Part shown: positions 5,689 to 57,066 of the stretch, in pieces
Layout of the letters: each line of letters opens with the position of its first letter
Numbering within the stretch: the stretch's first letter is position 1
Assembly: GCA_019637265.1 (NCBI GenBank)
Contig: JAHBVY010000001.1
Coordinates: 930,001 to 994,000, forward strand
DNA from: Polyangiaceae bacterium
Lineage (GTDB): Bacteria > Myxococcota_A > Polyangia > Polyangiales > Polyangiaceae
Length of the DNA stretch: 64,000 nt
Reading direction: 5' to 3'
Translations under genes and position numbers: made by a program
The notes under the pieces: generated by a model
Told to the model about the DNA's origin: nothing
The model's database searches: none
The model's input: only the letters and a program-made list of their open reading frames with translations

Positions 5689-5717
5689 GAGGGTGGGGGT
5701 GGGTTGGACGGCACCGC
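5689..5717 (-). repeat. dispersed CCGTCCAACCC motif, copy 1
   Basis: Between the ABC operon and the Gly-rich lipoprotein gene. Read on the minus strand it is GCGGTGCCGTCCAACCC followed by ACCC, matching the first half of the copies at 7535 and 31467. Confidence 0.6.
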
Positions 5718-5911: not shown

Positions 5912-7183
5912 TCACTGGCAAGCAGCGAGGCAGGTGCCGTACTCGTTGGATGAATAGCCGAAGTTGCAGCCGAGTATGTCGTAAGCAGCGTTGATGTCCG
6001 CCGCGCTGTGCCCGGTCTCGCACGTGTCGCACTCGGAGCCAACGCACTCGAGGTAGCAGAAGTACACGTCCTCACAGCCCGGGCTGCAGGCGTTGACCTC
6101 TGCTGCGCAGCAGTTGTCCCAGGAATCAGTGATGCAGTCCACACACGCGTTCGCGCCTGAGTACTCCACGCCACCGTCGTAGCAGGTGTTGGTGATGTCC
6201 CAGCTGGCCGAGGCGACCGTCAGGCACCGCCCACCCGGCACCGGGGTGGTGTTGAGGCTCGAGTCGTAGGTGACCTCCACCAGGGTGACGTTGCTCAGCG
6301 AGCCCGCGCTGATCTGCGGGGCGATGGTGTTGACGCGACTGACAGTCATGTTGCCGGCCGACTGGAAGTAGAGCCGCGCAGCACCCGACGTGGTGACGTC
6401 CTCGTAACCACGCACCGCCTCATCCGAGGTGAGGTAGTTGTCGTTCGGCGGCGTCGCCAGGTTGAAGGTGCCGGTGCGCGCGTTCCACTGCTCGATCAGG
6501 ACGAAGTCTGGCTCGCCACCACCGATCGGGCTCACCTCGGCCCAAAGGGTGTTGGGCGTGAAGTAGCCCTGCACGTTGCTCAGGGTGACTGGGGTGCAGG
6601 TCGGGGCCGTGCCGCCGGTGCCGCCCGTGCCGGGCGTGCCGCCCGTACCACCCGTTCCCGGCGTGCCGCCGGTGCCACCCGTGCCGGGCGTACCGCCCGT
6701 GCCACCGGTACCAGGCGTACCGCCGGTGCCGCCCGTGCCGGGAGTACCACCCGTGCCGCCCGTGCCCGGCGTGCCACCGGTGCCACCCGTGCCCGGGGTG
6801 CCGCCGGTGCCACCGGTGGGCGCACCGCCGATGCCGCCCGTGGTGTCGCCGCCGACGCCGCCCGTGGTGTCACCGCCCACGCCGCCGGTGGGCGCGCCGC
6901 CGGTGCCCGCGGTGCCGCCCGTGGGCGCGCCGCCAATACCACCCGTACCGCCGGTGGGGGCGCCGCCGGTGCCCGCGGTGCCGCCCGTGGGCGCGCCACC
7001 CGTGCCACCCGTCGGGATGCCACCGCTGCCGCCGAAGCCAGCCGTGCCGCCAGAGGCGGCCACGCCGCCGGTGCCCGCCGTGCCTGCCGTCGAGCTGCCG
7101 CCCGAACCGCCACCACCGTCATCCGACGAGCAAGCGCCCAGCGCCATCACCAACCCCAGCAAACCCAAGCTACGAATCTTCAT
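5912..7183 (-). CDS. Gly/Thr-rich repeat lipoprotein with Cys-rich C-terminus
   Basis: A 423-residue exported protein. The ATG at 7183 has a strong ribosome site (CAGGAGG, 10 bases before) and opens a signal peptide ending in a lipobox (LGAC). Residues ~25-190 are low-complexity GGTGG(A/T)PTGG and GGTPGTGG units, the Gly-rich stalk common in myxobacterial surface lipoproteins. A globular part follows, then a Cys-rich end (about 14 Cys in the last 100 residues) with pairs such as CVDC, CCAAEVNAC and CDTC, suggesting a disulfide-bonded surface domain. The gene stands alone and ends at a strong terminator. Function unknown; adhesion or a surface stalk is a guess. Confidence 0.85.
   Translation of the reverse strand: MKIRSLGLLGLVMALGACSSDDGGGGSGGSSTAGTAGTGGVAASGGTAGFGGSGGIPTGGTGGAPTGGTAGTGGAPTGGTGGIGGAPTGGTAGTGGAPTGGVGGDTTGGVGGDTTGGIGGAPTGGTGGTPGTGGTGGTPGTGGTGGTPGTGGTGGTPGTGGTGGTPGTGGTGGTPGTGGTGGTPGTGGTGGTAPTCTPVTLSNVQGYFTPNTLWAEVSPIGGGEPDFVLIEQWNARTGTFNLATPPNDNYLTSDEAVRGYEDVTTSGAARLYFQSAGNMTVSRVNTIAPQISAGSLSNVTLVEVTYDSSLNTTPVPGGRCLTVASASWDITNTCYDGGVEYSGANACVDCITDSWDNCCAAEVNACSPGCEDVYFCYLECVGSECDTCETGHSAADINAAYDILGCNFGYSSNEYGTCLAACQ
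6605..7100. repeat. codon-periodic tandem repeats encoding the Gly/Thr stalk
   Basis: Repeats of about 24 bases (plus-strand pattern GTGCCGCCCGTGCCGGGC with synonymous changes) encode GGTPGTGG; the upstream part is less regular (GGAPTGGTGGIGG). Third-position variation between otherwise identical units shows that the peptide is maintained, so this is not a purely recent slippage product. Confidence 0.85.
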
Positions 7184-7687
7184 GTCCTTGTATCCTCCTG
7201 AACCCACTCATATCCACACGGAAACCGATGGGGAAGAGCCAACGGTGGCCTCGGTTCCGGGGGTGGGGTGGTGTACGCGCTCATCGCACCCGGGCGCAAT
7301 GAAAAACTTCACTAATACCACCCACCACGAGCCCTGAAAACTGCCAAATGAGCCAGGATTGGCACTTCAGGCCGGTCGACCGACAACCTACGGAGGGGTG
7401 CTCTGCGGGGCTTAGTTTGGGCTTCAGGGGCACCTACTTTGCGGGGGCACCTAGCGATGGGTTGGGGCCGAGAGCCGCCACGCCGCAGGAGGCGCGCCCT
7501 GGAGGGCTGACCTCCCTGAGGCGCCTCGCTGGTGCGGTGCCGTCCAACCCCCAAACCCTCAGCACTGAAGGCCCCGTTCGCGACAGCCAGGCACACTGAT
7601 CCAAGCCCTCCAGGTGCTGGCGGACGCGCCAGCGCTCGCCGGAGGCGCTGGCGTGCACAGGTCAACCGGTCGCCGATCGACCCGTGC
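7184..7687. other. intergenic region, 504 bases, no gene seen
   Basis: Holds the leader of the Gly-rich lipoprotein gene, a dispersed-motif copy at 7535 and an 8-bp inverted repeat CGCCAGCG/CGCTGGCG near 7628-7655 behind the DUF3817 gene. Short open frames here lack start signals and family features. Confidence 0.6.
7535..7557 (+). repeat. dispersed CCGTCCAACCCCCAA motif, copy 2
   Basis: CGGTGCCGTCCAACCCCC followed by AAACC. These 23 bases are identical to 31467-31489, 24 kb away. Confidence 0.8.
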
Positions 7688-11212: not shown

Positions 11213-12154
11213 TCAATCCACTGCGCCCGGCTCCGTCGAAGCTTCGTCAGCCCCCAGCAAGGCCTGGACCGCGCTGGCAGGCACCGTCAGGCGCAGCACC
11301 AGGTGCGCGCCCACGCGGGAGAGCCGGGAGCCCGCGAACCAGGAGCGGAGCGGTGCGACGGTGAGCGCGTGGGTGAGCGCCTCCTTGGCGCGCGTCTCCG
11401 CCGCGCGCGCCGAAGGCTCGTCCGCGTACTCGAGCGCGAGCTCCACCTGGAGCTCGCCCGCCTCGAGCGAGGCGTGGCCCGTGACCTCACGCGCGCCCTC
11501 GAGCAGCTCACCCAGCTCCGGCGCGCGCCGCTGAAAGGCCAGGGGGCGTCGCTCGAGCCGCCCCGCCAGGGACAGCACCCCGAGCGCTGGCGGCGTCACC
11601 CGCCGGTCCCCCTCCAGCCGCTCGAGCTGCCGCGCCACGCTGTGGAGCTCGACCGCCGACACGAACACCAGGACGTCGTCCCCCGAGCGGTAGAGCCGCG
11701 CGACGTCTTGGCGCCGCAGCCGAGCCAGCCCGCGCCGCTCTTGGCGACGCCAGTCAGCCCCCAGGTCCACCTCCGGCCCCCACTGCTCGCCCTCACCAGC
11801 CGGCGTGAAGTCGCGGAAGCTCCCCTGGGCGATCACGACGTAGTCCGTGTCCTCCAGCCTCTCACCGGGCCGCAGCGCGAGCCACAGGGTGTCCGCGTGG
11901 AGCAGCGCGCGGGCGACGCTGGGCGCGTCGCCCGTCAGCTCTTCGGCGCCGAGCGCAATGAGCCGAGCGGCCCCCAGCGCGCGGCGCACGCGCCGTAGAT
12001 CGAGCCTGAGCACCCAGTCGAGATCCCCAGGGATCGCGGCCTCCGGACGCGCGGGCGCGGCGCTGGGCGGCGATGCGAGCTGTCGCGAGCCGCCACAGGC
12101 AGGTGACGTGACGAGCGCCGCGGTCAGCGCGACGACCCATCCAGCGCGCCTCAC
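11213..12154 (-). CDS. putative lipoprotein of unknown function (downstream of cmk)
   Basis: A 313-residue protein with a signal peptide and lipobox-like end SPAC. The mature part begins with DLDWVLRLDLRRVRRALG and continues as an alpha/beta sequence without recognised motifs. The opening resembles that of the lipoprotein encoded between hisC and aroA (LPSGAVGMLVVDAKVL), so the two may be distant paralogs. Its ATG overlaps the cmk stop (ATGA), placing it in the aroA-cmk operon. The -3 lipobox residue is Ser, so lipidation is less certain. Function not recognised. Confidence 0.75.
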   Translation of the reverse strand: MRRAGWVVALTAALVTSPACGGSRQLASPPSAAPARPEAAIPGDLDWVLRLDLRRVRRALGAARLIALGAEELTGDAPSVARALLHADTLWLALRPGERLEDTDYVVIAQGSFRDFTPAGEGEQWGPEVDLGADWRRQERRGLARLRRQDVARLYRSGDDVLVFVSAVELHSVARQLERLEGDRRVTPPALGVLSLAGRLERRPLAFQRRAPELGELLEGAREVTGHASLEAGELQVELALEYADEPSARAAETRAKEALTHALTVAPLRSWFAGSRLSRVGAHLVLRLTVPASAVQALLGADEASTEPGAVD

Positions 12155-12849
12155 CGGAGCGCGGCCTCGATCTGCCGCACGCGCTCGACGATGAGCGCCA
12201 CCACCTGCTCGAGATCGAGGCGCGAGCTGTCCACCAAGAGCGCGTCCTCCGCCTGGCGCAGCGGCGCCACGGCGCGCTCCATGTCGCGCGCGTCGCGCGC
12301 GCGCACCTCGGCCTCCACCTCGCTGGCCGACGGCACCTCACCGCGCGCGCGCAGCTCATCCAGCCGCCGCGCGGCGCGCACCTGGGTGTCCGCCGTGAGG
12401 AAGAACTTCGCCTCCGCGTCGGGGAACACCACGGTGCCGATGTCGCGCCCCTCGAGCACCACGCCGCCCTCCGCCGCCTGACTGCGCTGGAGTGACAACA
12501 GCGCCGCGCGCACGCCGGGCATCGCCGACACGAAGCTCGCCCCCTCCCCCACCCGCTGCTCGCGGATCCGCGCGGTCACGTCCTCACCATCGAGCAGCAC
12601 CCGCTGCTCGCCCCCTGGCGCCACCTCGAAGCGGATCCCGCCGCGCGCCGCCAGCGCCTCCGTCAGCGCCGTGAGCCCCGCCTCATCTCGCCAACCCACG
12701 CCCTGGATGAGCGCCGCCAGCGCCACCGAGCGGTACAGCGCCCCGGTGTCGAGCCGCAGGTACCCGAGCGCCTCGGCCACGCGTTGGCTCACGCTGGTCT
12801 TCCCCGCGCCCGCCGGGCCATCGATCGCCACCACCGGCCGCGCCCTCAC
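12151..12849 (-). CDS. cmk: cytidylate kinase
   Basis: A 232-residue kinase that phosphorylates CMP/dCMP with ATP. It has P-loop GPAGAGKTS (residues 11-19), LRLDTGALYRSVA, the lid-type Arg motifs and VVLEGRDIGTVVFPDAEAKFFL, all typical of Cmk. The GTG at 12849 is preferred: GAGG lies 8 bases upstream and VVAIDGPAGAGK is the usual N-terminus. A longer in-frame start would add a repeat-encoded (R/G)LVGGA stretch. It follows aroA and precedes a lipoprotein gene and rpsA, a widely conserved order. Confidence 0.93.
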   Translation of the reverse strand: MRARPVVAIDGPAGAGKTSVSQRVAEALGYLRLDTGALYRSVALAALIQGVGWRDEAGLTALTEALAARGGIRFEVAPGGEQRVLLDGEDVTARIREQRVGEGASFVSAMPGVRAALLSLQRSQAAEGGVVLEGRDIGTVVFPDAEAKFFLTADTQVRAARRLDELRARGEVPSASEVEAEVRARDARDMERAVAPLRQAEDALLVDSSRLDLEQVVALIVERVRQIEAALR

Positions 12850-12949
12850 GAGGCCACCTCGCGCTTTGCTCCCTGCGCCTCCGACCAACCTTGCGCCTCC
12901 GACCAACCTTGCGCCTCCGACCAACCCCGCGCCCTCACGAGGCCACCTC
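12838..12949. repeat. 89-bp duplication with three 18-bp units at the aroA-cmk junction
   Basis: A 23-base direct repeat (12838-12860 and 12927-12949) covers the aroA stop and the cmk start. Between the copies are three tandem 18-bp units (12873-12890, 12891-12908, 12909-12926; TGCGCCTCCGACCAACC core). In each copy the sequence GTGA could serve as overlapping start/stop, suggesting that aroA and cmk originally overlapped and were pushed apart. Confidence 0.85.
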
Positions 12950-14287
12950 CACCTCTGCGCCGAGCGCCCGCAGCGTGCCGACGAAGCGTGGGAAGCTGGT
13001 GGCGATACAGTCCGCATCCAAGATCCGCGTCGGCCCGTCCCCGAGCAAGCCGAGCACCGCCGCGGTCATCGCGATCCGGTGATCGCCCCGGGAGCTCAGC
13101 GAAGCGGCGGTCAGCTGACCATCCGGCTGACCATCCACCACCAGCCCATCGGGCGTCTCCTCGGCGCTCACCCCGAACGCGCCGAGCACCTTCACCATCT
13201 CCGCGATCCGATCGCTCTCCTTCACCCTCAGCTCCGCGAGATCCATGAACCGGCTCTGGCCGCGCGCGCGCGCCGCCAGCGCGCAGGCGATCGGGATCTC
13301 ATCGATCGCGCGCACCGCCAGCTCACCGCCCACGTTGCTCGCGCGGAGCTGGCGCGCCGAGACGCTCACCTGACCTTGGCTCTCCCCCAGGCGACTCCCA
13401 TGCGGCTCCACCCCCAAGGGCGCGCCCATCGCGCGCATCAGATCGAGGAGCCCGGTGCGAGTGTGGTTCAGCCCCGTGTCGCGCACCGTCACCGTGCTGC
13501 CAGGCACCAGGAGCCCGGCGGTGAGCACGAAGGCTGCCGCGGAGAAATCTCCCGGCACGCACAGCTCGAACGGCTCGATGCAGCTCGGATCCGCCGGCGG
13601 GTGCAGGCTCACCATGCCGCCCACTGTTTCCACGGGGAGACGCAGCGCCTCCATCAGGCGCTCGGTGTGGTCGCGGCTGACGAGCGGCTCGCTCACCAAG
13701 GTGGGCCCCGACGCGAACAGCCCGCTCAGGAGCAGGGCGCTCTTCACCTGCGCGCTGGCGACGGGTAGCGTGTACTCGAGCGGGCCCAAACGCTCACCGG
13801 GCGCGACCCCCAACACGCGGAGCGGCGCCGTGATCTCGCCGGGTTTTTCGGGGTTGGGTTGCCCCTGGAAGCGCCCCCCCCGCGCCTCGAGCGGCGCCGT
13901 CACGCGCCGCATCGGGCGGCGACTGAGGCTCTCGTCCCCCACCAAGACAGCCTCGAAGGGCTGCGCCGCGAGCAGCCCGGCGAACAGCCGCATGCTGGTC
14001 CCCGAGTTGCCGCAGTCGATGACGCCTTGGGGCGCGCGGAGCCCGCTCAGCCCCACGCCGTGGCACACGATGTTCCCGCGCTCGTCATCCTCGATCCGTA
14101 CGCCCAGCTGACGGAGCGCGCGCAGGGTGGCGACGTTGTCACCGCCGTAGCTGAAGCCGGTGATGCGGCAGGCGCCGCGCGACAGCGCCGCGAAGATCAG
14201 CGCGCGGTGACCGATGCTCTTGTCGCTGGGGACCGGCACGCTGCCGGTGAGGGGACGCTCTGCAGGGGAGACGATCAGCGTCGTCAC
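12935..14287 (-). CDS. aroA: 3-phosphoshikimate 1-carboxyvinyltransferase (EPSP synthase)
   Basis: A 450-residue enzyme of the shikimate pathway joining shikimate-3-phosphate and phosphoenolpyruvate. Motifs: SDKSIGHRAL (catalytic Lys 23), DCGNSGTSMR, GDESLSRRPM, SAQVKSALLLSG, LRVKESDRI and RGDHRIAM. The GTG at 14287 overlaps the upstream stop (GTGA) and follows GAAGG. Residues 141-153 (QGQPNPEKPG region) look like a small extra loop encoded by a copy of the dispersed motif. It is part of the hisC-lipoprotein-aroA-cmk operon. Confidence 0.95.
   Translation of the reverse strand: MTTLIVSPAERPLTGSVPVPSDKSIGHRALIFAALSRGACRITGFSYGGDNVATLRALRQLGVRIEDDERGNIVCHGVGLSGLRAPQGVIDCGNSGTSMRLFAGLLAAQPFEAVLVGDESLSRRPMRRVTAPLEARGGRFQGQPNPEKPGEITAPLRVLGVAPGERLGPLEYTLPVASAQVKSALLLSGLFASGPTLVSEPLVSRDHTERLMEALRLPVETVGGMVSLHPPADPSCIEPFELCVPGDFSAAAFVLTAGLLVPGSTVTVRDTGLNHTRTGLLDLMRAMGAPLGVEPHGSRLGESQGQVSVSARQLRASNVGGELAVRAIDEIPIACALAARARGQSRFMDLAELRVKESDRIAEMVKVLGAFGVSAEETPDGLVVDGQPDGQLTAASLSSRGDHRIAMTAAVLGLLGDGPTRILDADCIATSFPRFVGTLRALGAEVEVAS
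13838..13863 (-). repeat. dispersed motif copy inside aroA
   Basis: On the minus strand CCCAACCCCGAAAAACCCG, closely matching the intergenic copy at 38010 (CAAACCCCCAAAAAACCCG). It encodes PNPEKP in frame; the dnaE2 copy encodes PNPQKT. Confidence 0.55.
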
Positions 14288-17783: not shown

Positions 17784-18107
17784 CTAGGGCTTGGCCTCGG
17801 CCTTGGCAGGCTTCGCGGGCTTGCTCTCGGCGCTGGGCTTGTCAGCGCTCGGCTTGTCGGCGCTGGGCTTGCTCTCCGCGCTCGGCTTGTCGGCGCCGTT
17901 CGCCTTCGTCGAAGCGCCTCCGTTGCTCGAGCCGTACAAGTCCGCGTACCAGCCGCCGCCCTTCAGGATGAACCCTGCGCCACCCGAAATCTGCCGTTTG
18001 GCATGGGCCTGACCGCAGCTGGGGCAGTCCTTGAGCGGAGCCGCGCTGATCGACTGGTCCGCCTCCCACTGATGTCCGCACGCTTCACACAGGTACTCGT
18101 AAGTCAT
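17784..18107 (-). CDS. FmdB-family zinc ribbon protein
   Basis: A 107-residue protein starting MTYEYLCEACGHQWEADQ. Two CxxC knuckles (CEAC and CPSC) form a zinc ribbon, followed by the family tail (GGAGFILKGGGWYADLYG). The last ~45 residues are a Lys/Pro/Ser/Ala-rich repeat (KPSADKPSAESKP). FmdB-like proteins are often called putative regulators, but their role is not settled. It lies 107 bases upstream of pheA on the same strand with a family A hairpin in between. Confidence 0.9.
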   Translation of the reverse strand: MTYEYLCEACGHQWEADQSISAAPLKDCPSCGQAHAKRQISGGAGFILKGGGWYADLYGSSNGGASTKANGADKPSAESKPSADKPSADKPSAESKPAKPAKAEAKP

Positions 18108-18177
18108 GTCAGGCTCCTGCCTCCGCCGGCGAGCCGACGAAGGCGCGCTAATGTGTTCGGCATTCCCGCGCTGTCAA

Positions 18178-18656
18178 CCGGCTCTTCAGAGCATTCAAGC
18201 TTCGAGGGATGCTCTTCAGGGCTCACGGAGACGCCCATGAGGTCGACGACCGGTCACCCAAGGGGCACTGCGGCGCCCGAACACTGCCCGACAGAGGGCC
18301 CAAGATGGCCCCAAGAGGGAGTGCACCGGCTCAGAGCATTCAAGCTTCGAGGGATGCTCTTCAGGGCCGCACGGAGACGCCCATGAGGTCGACGACCGGT
18401 CACCCAAGGGGCACTGCTACGTCGAACACTGCCCAAACAGAGGCCCGAGGCGCACCAAGAGGGAGTGCACCGGCTCTTCAACGTCTCATGGTGCCTCACG
18501 ACGCTCTTCAGGGCCGCACGGAGGCGCCCATGAGGTCGACGACCGGTCACCCAAGGGGCACTGCGGCGCCGAACACTGCCCGACAGAGGGCCCAAGATGG
18601 CCCCAAGAGGGAGTGCACCGGCTCAGAGCATTCAGGCTTCGAGGGATGCTCTTCAG
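18178..18656. repeat. tandem array of 148/144/148-bp units plus a partial unit
   Basis: Units start at 18178, 18326, 18470 and 18618 (the last ~39 bp). Each begins CCGGCTC, then a hairpin, GCTCTTCAGGG, CGCCCATGAGGTCGACGACC, GGTCACCCAAGGGGCACTGC and ends AAGAGGGAGTGCA. In units 1, 2 and 4 the hairpin arms are AGAGCAT/ATGCTCT; in unit 3 they are replaced by CGTC/GACG, so the sequence changed but pairing was kept. A diverged inverted relative lies at 56930-57055. An open frame runs through it, but two unit lengths are not multiples of three. Confidence 0.92.
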
Positions 18657-19125
18657 GGGCAAGGGTGCACTGCTCCTCGGTGGCTCCGAGCGACTGTGGC
18701 ACCGTGAGGAGCGCTCTGGATCTACCAACCCCCCGATCCCAATCGCACGGCTCTCGCCTGGGCTCGCCAGGGGGCGCTCGAAGTGGGACACTGGGCCCGT
18801 CACCAAGGATGCCCGACCTCGACCGAATGACCGAATAGTAGACCTCTGTTCAGACTGCTTGTGTGCTCAGTCTTGGCAGTGTACGACCGTGCAGTACCTG
18901 GCATGACCCTACATGACGTTAGGTGTACCCCCGCGGTGCCGTTCGGGCAGCGCTGCAGCCCGTGGATCGCGAGCCACGTCCACGGCTCCCCGTGGGTCGT
19001 TTCAAGGCGCCTTTCGGGTTGGGGGTTGGCTCACGCCGTGAGCCGCGGCGTGCGCTCGCGCATCAGCCGCCAGGTGCCGAGCGCTTCGAAGCGGGGCGCG
19101 CGGTCAGGGCGAGGGTGACAAGAGC
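18657..19125. other. intergenic region upstream of smc
   Basis: No gene seen. The stretch 18830-18920 is less GC-rich than its surroundings and probably holds the smc promoter, but no clear boxes were found. A CCGTGGGTCG half-hairpin lies at 18990 and a G-rich motif copy at 19015. Confidence 0.5.
19015..19032 (-). repeat. dispersed G-rich motif copy upstream of smc
   Basis: Plus strand GGGTTGGGGGTTGGC; the core CCAACCCCCAA reads on the minus strand. About 95 bases before the smc start. Confidence 0.5.
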
Positions 19126-23038: not shown

Positions 23039-24853
23039 TCAGTTCGTGAAAGGCGTGATGTCCAGCTCGAAGATCGGGTTGGGTCCACCCGGATCGCTCA
23101 CCGCGTCCCACTGGCTCGCCGTGGTGATCGGGCTGAGGTAAGCAGGGAAAGCCAGGCCGCTGCGGGCGCCGCTGTAGTTGCAGTTGGGCCCCAGCGCGGG
23201 GATCTCCACGAAAGCGGCGGCCAGCTCCGGCGGGAGCTCCGTCTGGTGACTGCTGCTCGCGCCGTCCACGAAGCCCACGTCGGTGGCGCAGGAGAGCGCG
23301 AACAAGAACCAGGGGGCCGCGGCGGTCCCCTGGTAGGCGAGGATCTGATCGCCGCTCGTAGAGAAGTTCGTCGTGTTGCGGAGCACGCTCACGTCAGGAG
23401 AGCTGGCGGTCAGCCCGTTGACCCGCACCACCGTCCCCGCGGGGATGAGCTGATTCAAAATCACCTGCGCGGTGCCCTCGCTGCTCGCGAGCCCCGTGGC
23501 CGCGTTCCAGCGGTTGTCGGTGAAGAGGATCTCGGTGCCGGGCCCCACGTCCACCAGGAAGCCGAACGCGAAGTGATCGGGGTCCTGGGTGCGCATGCCA
23601 GTGAGCACCAGCTGACCCGGCTTCAGGGTGTTGGCGACGCAGGTGTTGCGCCCGAGGTTGGTGAAGGTGTCCTGAGGCAGCTCCTCCCACTCGAGGGAGG
23701 GGTTGGTGAAGCCTGCGGGGTTGCCCTGGGTCACGCTGCACTTGCGGAGCAGGGTCCTGTCCGAGGTCCTGACCCCACCGCCTATCCATGCGGCGCCTGG
23801 ATCCTGGCCGATGGTGCCGAACACGTCGTGCACCTGACCATTGCAGACGAGCTCGAGGGCATCGTCGCCGTTGAAGTTGGCTACGACGGCTGACACCTGG
23901 TCACAGAGGCCGCCTCCGCCAATGTTCGCCGCGCGGCACAGGGTGTAGACCTCTCCGGTCCCTAGGGTCCCGCTGAGGGTGGCCGGTGTGTCTGGCGTGG
24001 AGCTACCGTTGACGTAGATCCGCACCTGACACTCACTGAGGTCCTGCGGCGGGCCCGCGTTGTAGATCTCGAGCGCCTTGTTGTTGGTGCCCGAGCCCTC
24101 GATGTACTCGCTGAAATAGAGGTTAGGGGTGACCGGCCCGGTGCCGCCGGTGCCACCTGCGCCGCCCACGCCACCGGCACCACCCGCGGCACCCCCAACG
24201 CCACCTGTGCCCGCCGTGGAACCACCGACGCCACCGGCGCCACCCGTGGAACCGCCCGTGCCACCCGTCGAGCCGCCGACGCCACCCGTCGAGCCGCCCA
24301 CGCCACCAGCCCCACCCGTCGAGCCACCCACGCCGCCAGCACCCGCCGTCGTGGAGCCACCCACACCACCGGCGCCAGCCGTGGAGCCACCCACACCGCC
24401 AACACCAGCCGTGGAACCGCCCACGCCGCCAGCGCCGGCCGCGGAACCACCCACGCCGCCAGCGCCGCCCGTGGAGCCACCCACACCGCCAACACCAGCC
24501 GTGGAGCCGCCCACGCCACCAGCGCCGGCCGTGGAGCCACCCACACCGCCGACACCCGCCGTGGAGCCGCCCACTCCGCCCGTAGAACCGCCGACTCCCC
24601 CGCTGCCACCCACGGCGCCCACGCCGGCGCTGCCGCCGAACGCACCAACCCCCGCGGTGCCGCCGAAGGCGCCGTTGCCCCCGGTCGCTGCGGTGCCGCC
24701 CGTGGCCGCGCTACCGCCGCTACCAGCCACACCAGCGCTGCCGCCGCTGCCTGGCTTCTTGTCGTCGTCATCGCCACCACAGGCGATCGTGAGGAGCGGC
24801 GCGCAGAGCACCAAGGCGGAGTAGGTTCGGAGCGGACGTAGGTAGGAAGCCAT
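23039..24853 (-). CDS. lamin-tail-domain lipoprotein with Gly-rich repeat stalk
   Basis: A 604-residue exported protein. The ATG at 24853 opens a signal peptide ending in a lipobox (TIAC) and an acidic DDDDKK. Residues ~35-235 are GGVGGSTAGAGG-type repeats. A lamin-tail (LTD) domain follows (LYFSEYIEGSGTNNKALEIY, DALELVCNGQVHDVFG), then a second beta-rich domain (FGFLVDVGPGTEILFTDN, LIPAGTVVRVNG) of the kind often paired with LTD in secreted proteins. It should sit on the cell surface; LTD domains in bacteria are linked to secreted nucleases and surface proteins, but no catalytic domain is seen here. Confidence 0.88.
   Translation of the reverse strand: MASYLRPLRTYSALVLCAPLLTIACGGDDDDKKPGSGGSAGVAGSGGSAATGGTAATGGNGAFGGTAGVGAFGGSAGVGAVGGSGGVGGSTGGVGGSTAGVGGVGGSTAGAGGVGGSTAGVGGVGGSTGGAGGVGGSAAGAGGVGGSTAGVGGVGGSTAGAGGVGGSTTAGAGGVGGSTGGAGGVGGSTGGVGGSTGGTGGSTGGAGGVGGSTAGTGGVGGAAGGAGGVGGAGGTGGTGPVTPNLYFSEYIEGSGTNNKALEIYNAGPPQDLSECQVRIYVNGSSTPDTPATLSGTLGTGEVYTLCRAANIGGGGLCDQVSAVVANFNGDDALELVCNGQVHDVFGTIGQDPGAAWIGGGVRTSDRTLLRKCSVTQGNPAGFTNPSLEWEELPQDTFTNLGRNTCVANTLKPGQLVLTGMRTQDPDHFAFGFLVDVGPGTEILFTDNRWNAATGLASSEGTAQVILNQLIPAGTVVRVNGLTASSPDVSVLRNTTNFSTSGDQILAYQGTAAAPWFLFALSCATDVGFVDGASSSHQTELPPELAAAFVEIPALGPNCNYSGARSGLAFPAYLSPITTASQWDAVSDPGGPNPIFELDITPFTN
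24130..24750. repeat. tandem repeats encoding GGVGGST(A/G) stalk
   Basis: Units of about 30 bases with many synonymous third-position changes encode GGVGGSTAGA; Val/Ser/Ala replace Pro/Thr of the stalk near 6.6-7.1 kb. Confidence 0.85.
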
Positions 24854-25037
24854 GGGGGCGCAGGGTACGGCCCCTGCCCTGCCCACGCAACGACGCACAG
24901 CGGCGTGGCGGCAGATGTCCCCGCGCTGTCACGAGATCCTGACTCATACCCGCTGAGGGCAGCCTCGGGTTGCCGCCAGGCGGACGGGGAAACCGCCCAA
25001 CGCGCGAGCGCTGCTCGAGGCGCGCCCGCCGCCTGTC

Positions 25038-31466: not shown

Positions 31467-31489
31467 CGGTGCCGTCCAACCCCCAAACC
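31467..31489 (+). repeat. dispersed CCGTCCAACCCCCAA motif copy
   Basis: CGGTGCCGTCCAACCCCC then AAACC; identical over 23 bases to 7535-7557. It lies between the divergent imuA and lipoprotein genes. Confidence 0.8.
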
Positions 31490-32145: not shown

Positions 32146-32168
32146 CTAGGGGGGTTGGACGGCACCGC
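32146..32168 (-). repeat. dispersed CCGTCCAACCCCC motif copy
   Basis: Minus strand CGGTGCCGTCCAACCCCCC, 20 bases after the lipoprotein stop and immediately before the family A hairpin. Confidence 0.7.
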
Positions 32169-56879: not shown

Positions 56880-57055
56880 GCCCATGAGGTTTGGGGGTTG
56901 GGGGTTCACTCCCTCCTAGTGCGTGACGTGGTCTTCAAGAGACGCTGTTCATGCGTCGCGCGGCGCTCGGGTCACGGTCCTCGACCTCATGGGCGTCTTC
57001 GCGTGGTCTTGAAGAACGTCGTGCGGAGTCTCGGGGATTTGAAGAGCTGGTTGGA
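56880..57055 (-). repeat. diverged inverted copy of the smc-upstream repeat unit
   Basis: 56966-57050 aligns by eye at roughly three bases in four with the reverse complement of unit 3 of the 18178 array: TCGACCTCATGGGCG, TTGAAGA(A/G)CGTCGTG and TTGAAGAGC(T/C)GG are shared. An 11-base inverted partner GCCCATGAGGT lies at 56880-56890 facing ACCTCATGGGC at 56984-56994. Confidence 0.75.
56886..56909 (-). repeat. dispersed G-rich motif copy
   Basis: Plus strand GGTTTGGGGGTTGGGGGTT; a double core, directly next to the diverged repeat unit. Confidence 0.6.
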
Positions 57056-57066
57056 CGGCACCGCCC
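57048..57066 (-). repeat. dispersed CCGTCCAACC motif copy
   Basis: Minus strand GGTGCCGTCCAACCAGC, at the end of the diverged repeat unit. Confidence 0.55.

What the first reader, a model, noticed from the sequence alone, without database searches (positions are those of the whole stretch)
18178..18656. Tandem 148-bp structured repeat array just upstream of smc
Three full units and one partial share >90% sequence by eye. The hairpin at each unit start changes its arm sequence in unit 3 (CGTC/GACG instead of AGAGCAT/ATGCTCT) while staying paired. Paired change suggests that a DNA or RNA hairpin is being kept, not a protein; the unit lengths (148, 144, 148) argue against coding. Position next to smc could mean a chromosome-structure element, but that is inference.
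Basis: partly seen in the sequence, partly recalled or inferred. Interest (0 to 1): 0.7.

Follow-up and report, generated by a model that had tools for sequence, protein, structure and literature searches.

The report
Modular dispersed repeat, BOX-like, species-specific
The repeat array beside smc is one enlarged copy of a roughly 147-base DNA module that sits in about 60 places between genes of this one bacterium, almost always spliced into a short motif (about 19 bases) that the same genome carries empty about 340 more times: probably a miniature mobile element, not a chromosome-structure element of smc.

Summary
The array is real: three head-to-tail units (148, 144, 148 bp) and a 40-nt partial, window 18180-18659, in the gap between a divergent zinc-ribbon gene and smc. 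It is not a local curiosity. A profile finds about 60 near-full-length dispersed copies in the 5.7-Mb genome and none in 183 other genomes of the order. The unit is inserted at one exact point in a short motif: GCGGTGCCGTCCAACC|unit|CCC. The same motif without a unit occurs 344 times (0-1 mismatch; reversed control 0) and is near absent in 97 family genomes. In 800 kb, 42 of 42 empty motifs were intergenic. Other motif 'dialects' also exist empty and filled. I read this as a two-tier, BOX-like family of non-autonomous intergenic repeats: a short, strongly maintained core plus an optional module that can go tandem. No Y1 transposase/RAYT or reverse transcriptase was found; the mobiliser is unknown. 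The smc link is not supported. Functional constraint on the short core is the most interesting open point.

The parts
18164..18179 (+). degenerate left core (ending GCGCTGTCAACC) abutting unit 1, aligned with GCGGTGCCGTCCAACC of other copies
   Evidence: sequence, left-flank comparison
18180..18327 (+). unit 1, 148 bp
18328..18471 (+). unit 2, 144 bp
18472..18619 (+). unit 3, 148 bp, different hairpin segment
18620..18659 (+). partial unit 4 (first 40 nt)
56900..57066 (-). second, single-unit copy of the element in the window (left core GGTGCCGTCCAACC + unit + CCCCCAACCCCC)
   Evidence: profile hit 128.2 bits, E 1.8e-38; left core at 57049-57061
5702..5714 (-). empty (solo) short motif, core GTGCCGTCCAACC
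   Evidence: exact match
7536..7551 (+). empty (solo) short motif GGTGCCGTCCAACCCC
31468..31483 (+). empty (solo) short motif
32151..32166 (-). empty (solo) short motif

Best explanation
The array is an expanded copy of a modular, species-specific, non-autonomous intergenic repeat that works like pneumococcal BOX (boxA-[boxB]n-boxC). The outer part is a short core (type A: GCGGTGCCGTCCAACC, then CCC and a C/A-rich tail). The inner part is an optional ~147-bp module that enters exactly at AACC|CCC. Its own right end, GGGAGTGNACC, recreates the junction, so further modules can be added head to tail (zero in ~344 sites, one in ~60, three and a part here). SHOWN: the exact insertion point, the empty and filled sites, the tandem array, the restriction to this genome, the intergenic placement, and constraint on core and module positions. 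INFERRED: that it moved by insertion through short shared ends (AACC/ACC), using an enzyme not identified here, and that arrays grew by repeated insertion or unequal exchange at the same junction. Any effect on smc is incidental.
For: About 60 near-full-length copies of uniform length in the genome. Filled sites read GGTGCCGTCCAACC|RGCTCTTC...GGGAGTGNACC|CCC. 344 empty motifs with 0-1 mismatch against 0 for the reversed pattern; 42/42 in 800 kb lie outside called genes although 84% is coding. Mismatch spectrum of the 16-nt core in intergenic DNA is 44, 11, 3, 9 for 0-3 mismatches, 0, 0, 3, 24 in coding DNA. Four 3'-truncated modules (L114, L116, L123, L124) are followed by a second copy of their own locus-specific left flank plus core, clear in three (about 50-64 nt) and weaker in L123: read as interrupted insertions closed by template return. 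Unit subfamilies follow the left-core dialect (A, A', F). Unit profile absent from 183 other genomes of the order; core near absent in 97 family genomes. BOX architecture and its parasitic reading as described in PMC3049150.
Against: No transposase was tied to it: no PF01797, no PF00078 and one unrelated-looking IS110 fragment. No terminal inverted repeat and no target duplication at full-length copies was seen, unlike BOX. No second strain was available, so no insertion polymorphism was observed. Strong column constraint on terminal branches (1.3 vs 5.5-7.0 substitutions per column) is more than expected for dead mobile copies and points to some function in place. Which came first, empty or filled sites, is not settled.
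Confidence: 0.62

Rival explanations
1. The short 16-19-bp core is a functional DNA site (for example bound by a nucleoid or recombination protein) kept by selection at about 390 intergenic places, and the ~147-bp module is a parasite that uses these sites as safe harbours.
For: In intergenic DNA the core is almost all-or-nothing in mismatch spectrum (44 exact, 11 one-off, 3 two-off). Next to modules that differ by about 34% on average, the left core is still exact in 30 and one-off in 9 copies. Wholly intergenic.
Against: Absent from the same-genus genome and the family, which is unusual for a regulator's binding site. A recent burst of the core or gene conversion could give the same spectrum. 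No orientation preference was found.
Confidence: 0.3
2. The unit is a family of structured small RNAs, transcribed from the copies and kept for their fold.
For: Hairpin between the boxes GCTCTTCA and CTTCAAGG exceeds shuffles; perfect alternative stems in some copies (for example ACCTCCCG/CGGGAGGT in L111, GCACC/GGTGC in L117); conserved columns remain constrained on terminal branches.
Against: No significant covarying pair in 60 sequences; consensus folding gave unfavourable covariation terms on both strands; whole-unit fold z -0.7 to -1.9; wobble patterns do not agree on a strand; no Rfam match.
Confidence: 0.12
3. A REPIN-like or IS200/605-derived element moved by a Y1 transposase (RAYT).
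For: Hairpin potential near the left end, insertion 3' of a tetranucleotide-like AACC, tandem copies, many short intergenic copies.
Against: No Y1 transposase in a 98.5% complete genome; the core is not palindromic and solos are single, not inverted doublets.
Confidence: 0.07
4. A chromosome-structure element (SMC loading or partition site) belonging to smc.
For: Position upstream of smc; conserved DNA blocks.
Against: About 60 other copies at unrelated loci; the array itself lacks an intact core and the usual right end.
Confidence: 0.03

Closest known systems
BOX elements of Streptococcus pneumoniae and S. suis (boxA-[boxB]n-boxC)
   Same: Intergenic, dispersed, lineage-restricted; outer modules enclosing zero to several tandem copies of an inner module; the same inner module can sit in alternative outer modules (S. 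suis; here dialects A, A', F, C-like, B-like); predicted stem-loop in the inner module (PMC3049150).
   Different: Sequence relation was not tested directly. Here the inner module is longer (~147 bp; boxB is about 45 bp by my own knowledge), GC-rich, the left outer module is only ~16-19 nt in type A, there are no terminal inverted repeats, and no target duplication at full-length copies.
Small dispersed repeats (SDR) of Nostoc
   Same: Very short (about 20 nt) intergenic repeats in many copies, nested with other repeats (own knowledge of Elhai et al. 2008; cited in PMC3116915).
   Different: Different sequence, different phylum; here one family serves as the exact insertion point of a larger module.
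REPINs / REP-RAYT
   Same: Short extragenic repeats in hundreds of copies, occasional tandem arrays (PMC3116915).
   Different: Core not palindromic, no inverted doublets seen, no RAYT in the genome.
MITEs (Correia, RUP, ERIC)
   Same: Small, non-coding, intergenic, non-autonomous.
   Different: No terminal inverted repeats; exact site specificity.
msDNA-like repeats of Nannocystis (retron-derived)
   Same: Dispersed ~150-bp repeats in a myxobacterium (own knowledge).

Membership tests
BOX-type modular repeat | outer modules with 0 to n tandem inner modules | tested here: met
   empty (344), single (about 60), array of 3 and a part
BOX-type modular repeat | terminal inverted repeats and target site duplication | tested here: not met
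   none seen at full-length copies; duplication only at truncated modules
BOX-type modular repeat | sequence homology to boxA/B/C | not tested
   box sequences not fetched; works like BOX, not filed as BOX
REPIN/RAYT | Y1 transposase in genome | tested here: not met
   none; the control search rings in 5 of 14 known genomes
REPIN/RAYT | palindromic core in inverted doublets | tested here: not met
   core GCGGTGCCGTCCAACC is asymmetric; solos are single
Retron / RT-based element | reverse transcriptase | tested here: not met
   none in own genome; the control search rings in 3 of 14
IS110-derived (bridge RNA) miniature element | ends shared with an IS110 element in the genome | tested here: inconclusive
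   single IS110 at a contig end (C15:400-816, L217) carries no similar ends on the side present; the other side lies beyond the contig
Integron attC site | RYYYAAC ... GTTRRRY pair flanking a cassette | tested here: not met
   GTCCAAC fits RYYYAAC but no GTTRRRY partner in the alignments
Structured RNA family (Rfam) | match to a covariance model | tested here: not met
Structured RNA family (new) | significant covariation | tested here: not met
   hairpin alone weakly positive
MITE | terminal inverted repeats matching a resident transposon | tested here: inconclusive
   no inverted repeat seen by eye; resident transposons not all surveyed

The most novel reading that the evidence does not exclude
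A 16-19-bp intergenic word, unique to one species, is maintained at about 390 sites by selection or by a targeted copying system, in several dialects sharing the ending AACCCCC plus a C/A-rich tail. A ~147-bp module inserts at one exact position of these words and polymerises there, by a mobilisation system with neither a Y1 transposase nor a Pfam RVT_1 reverse transcriptase.
Probability: 0.25. Interest if true: 0.75.

Novelty: new variant of a known kind. Interest (0 to 1): 0.5.

Why it matters
If right, it is a clean natural example of a two-tier miniature repeat with its empty and filled sites, truncated forms and a tandem array all in one genome. The insertion mechanism and the meaning of the short core therefore become testable without an ancestor. 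It also warns against reading a gene-adjacent repeat array as a feature of that gene.

Tried and rejected
Rfam at gathering and relaxed thresholds: no match. Whole-unit RNA folding and RNAalifold on 27-60 copies: no support. An early lead, AGACGC..CATG / CATG..GCGTCT with wobbles favouring the minus strand, did not survive: it changes register between subfamilies, and the start hairpin shows wobbles of the plus-strand kind in some copies. blastn of the array against phages and plasmids: none. Exact 20-mer scan of 84,980 genomes: 5 scattered hits, taken as chance; viral contigs 0. Weak profile hits in relatives were examined (seven of them) and read as chance matches. Hairpin upstream of empty motifs: little above composition-matched shuffles (-21.5 vs -20.8, sd 0.39). 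attC, tRNA T-arm mimic and CCA-tailed retro-insertion ideas were considered; none had a defining feature met. IS110 link: not seen. Paper searches on myxobacterial repeats found nothing specific.

Full report
OBSERVATION. The array is there. Tandem Repeats Finder reports 18192-18658, period 147, 3.2 copies. Cut at the recurring junction ACC|GGCTC, the units are 18180-18327, 18328-18471, 18472-18619 and a 40-nt partial 18620-18659. Identity is 91-95% over ungapped positions and 80-89% counting gaps. After the hairpin segment units 1 and 3 are 97% alike, while the partial unit 4 matches unit 2 best (95%): the array looks like a two-unit block copied, with a hairpin segment exchanged (inference). 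The array lies in the gap (18108-19125) between a minus-strand zinc-ribbon gene (PF09723) and smc (SMC_N and hinge). The ORFs that run through it have no Pfam match, and the unit lengths 148, 144, 148 do not keep one reading frame.

GENOME-WIDE COPIES. blastn of the array against the window's own genome (5.7 Mb, 21 contigs, 98.5% complete) gave over 40 hits. A sequence profile from 27 dispersed copies and 3 window units finds about 60 near-full-length copies (model positions roughly 3-170 of 171) and a few partial ones. Another copy is in the window at 56900-57066, minus strand. Mean pairwise identity of the 60-sequence alignment is 67%. Nearly all of the 29 copies whose neighbours I called lie between genes at unrelated loci (L012 was the exception, overlapping a called frame), with all four neighbour orientations.

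THE UNIT SITS IN A SHORT MOTIF. Left flanks of most copies end in the same word, GCGGTGCCGTCCAACC, directly followed by the unit (RGCTCTTCA...GGGAGTGNACC), then CCC and a C/A-rich tract. Weak partial hits showed the same word followed directly by CCCC, with no complete unit. The empty word GGTGCCGTCCAACCCC occurs 344 times in the genome at 0-1 mismatch, 178 and 166 per strand, against 0 for the reversed pattern. In 800 kb of contig C1, 42 of 42 empty words fall outside called genes, where 84% is coding, with no clear orientation preference (gene calls are from my own codon-score script). The window holds four empty words.

DIALECTS. The same 800 kb holds further words that end in AACCCCC plus a C/A tract: GACTACCCGTCCAACCCCC, TGCCAAACCCCC (22), GCGCTACCAACCCCC (6), GCTAGCCAACCCCC (3), GCAGGCAAACCCCC (4) and CAGCGGGGGCGAACCCCC. 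The unit is found in several of them: A' and F clearly; a C-like and a B-like left flank each at one locus by eye (L106, L121). In the unit tree, the A' copies group together and so do the F copies. So left core and unit travel or evolve together to some degree.

TAXONOMIC RANGE. The unit profile has no hit at E 1e-6 in 183 other genomes of the order, one of them in the same genus. A looser family search gave only marginal hits that I read as chance, after motif scoring of seven of them. The core is near absent in 97 family genomes (0-4 each, near the reversed-pattern background). An exact scan of 84,980 genomes for the unit's best 20-mer gave 5 scattered hits; viral contigs, phages and plasmids gave none. 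The genome's name is not shown; that it is a myxobacterium is my inference from genome sizes in the family.

STRUCTURE. (a) Folding energy of the ~25-nt segment between the boxes GCTCTTCA and CTTCAAGG in 62 copies: mean -6.25, against -4.09 (sd 0.25) for shuffles and -5.48 (sd 0.28) when left and right halves are swapped between copies. (b) Outer 5-bp stem: 180 Watson-Crick cells of 310 against 163 (sd 5.5) on permutation; with G-T 206 against 200 (sd 3.7). Neither test corrects for relatedness. (c) All column pairs against a tree-based null: none significant (my own script, R-scape-like, not R-scape). Some copies have striking alternative stems, others none. So there is hairpin potential at this place, but not a proven conserved structure. 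In the window, unit 3 carries a replaced segment whose stem is only 4 bp.

CONSTRAINT. Columns with no substitution on internal branches also have few on terminal branches (1.3 per column, against 3.8, 5.5 and 7.0 in the more variable classes). The core's mismatch spectrum in intergenic DNA is 44, 11, 3, 9 for 0-3 mismatches, with 0, 0, 3, 24 in coding DNA. Beside units that have diverged by a third, the left core is exact in 30 copies and one-off in 9. Selection in place, gene conversion, or a younger age of the core would each explain this; I cannot separate them without a second strain.

MECHANISM. The exact insertion point, shared AACC/ACC at both junctions, and tandem copies joined at the same junction indicate insertion through a short shared end (inference). 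Four loci with the unit cut short at its right side (L114, L116, L123, L124) are followed by a second copy of their own left flank and core, then CCC (clear in three, weaker in L123). That is the pattern expected if copying of the unit stopped early and the free end re-annealed upstream. Full-length copies, whose right end matches the site, show no such duplication. Whether the template is DNA or RNA is open. No Y1 transposase and no reverse transcriptase were found in the genome, and the one IS110 shows no shared ends on the side present.

COMPARISON. The architecture is that of BOX elements: outer modules with zero to several tandem inner modules, and, in S. suis, the same inner module in alternative outer modules (PMC3049150). 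It differs in lacking terminal inverted repeats and in site precision. The short core resembles Nostoc small dispersed repeats in size and number (own knowledge; cited in PMC3116915). It is not a REPIN: no RAYT, no palindrome. I therefore say it works like BOX and do not file it as BOX.

VERDICT. The smc connection and the conserved-structure reading are not supported. The system is most likely a parasitic or formerly mobile modular repeat; functional use of the short core is not excluded.

Noticed in passing
L165-L204 (800 kb of C1), e.g. L137, L139, L145, L158: A palindromic REP-like repeat GGTAGGGGCGGGTTTCAAACCCGCCC, 44 pattern matches in 800 kb counting both strands (22 if each palindrome is counted once), although the genome has no RAYT.
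   Followed up: no
L011/L044, around the unit copy at G000:C3:47808: Another repeat, CCGTAGGGGCAGCCCCCCGTGGCTGCCC, occurs on both sides of the unit copy (41-nt near-identical match).
   Followed up: no
L165-L204: Other short intergenic words ending in AACCCCC plus a C/A-rich tract (types B-F), some with a second conserved box about 30 nt upstream (GCGACTGCGGCG.., CACCCTGCGAGCG.., GGTGGGCTCGC..).
   Followed up: partly
L057, L060 (G000:C1:1936952 and 1935425): Two near-identical unit copies with matching right flanks 1.5 kb apart, apparently a segmental duplication.
   Followed up: no
L217 (G000:C15:1-900): IS110-family transposase reading into a contig end, possibly a collapsed repeat in the assembly.
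   Followed up: partly
window 6608-7089 and 24162-24601: Long minisatellites with 9- to 66-bp periods; the second lies in a 619-aa ORF (23039-24898, minus) with Gly-rich repeats that looks like a secreted or surface protein.
   Followed up: no
window 12874-12926: Perfect 18-bp tandem repeat (TGCGCCTCCGACCAACCT, 2.9 copies) near the start of the predicted cytidylate-kinase-like ORF 12151-13017 (minus).
   Followed up: no
window 17827-17896: Tandem KPSAD/KPSAES repeats in the C-terminal tail of the zinc-ribbon protein next to the array.
   Followed up: no
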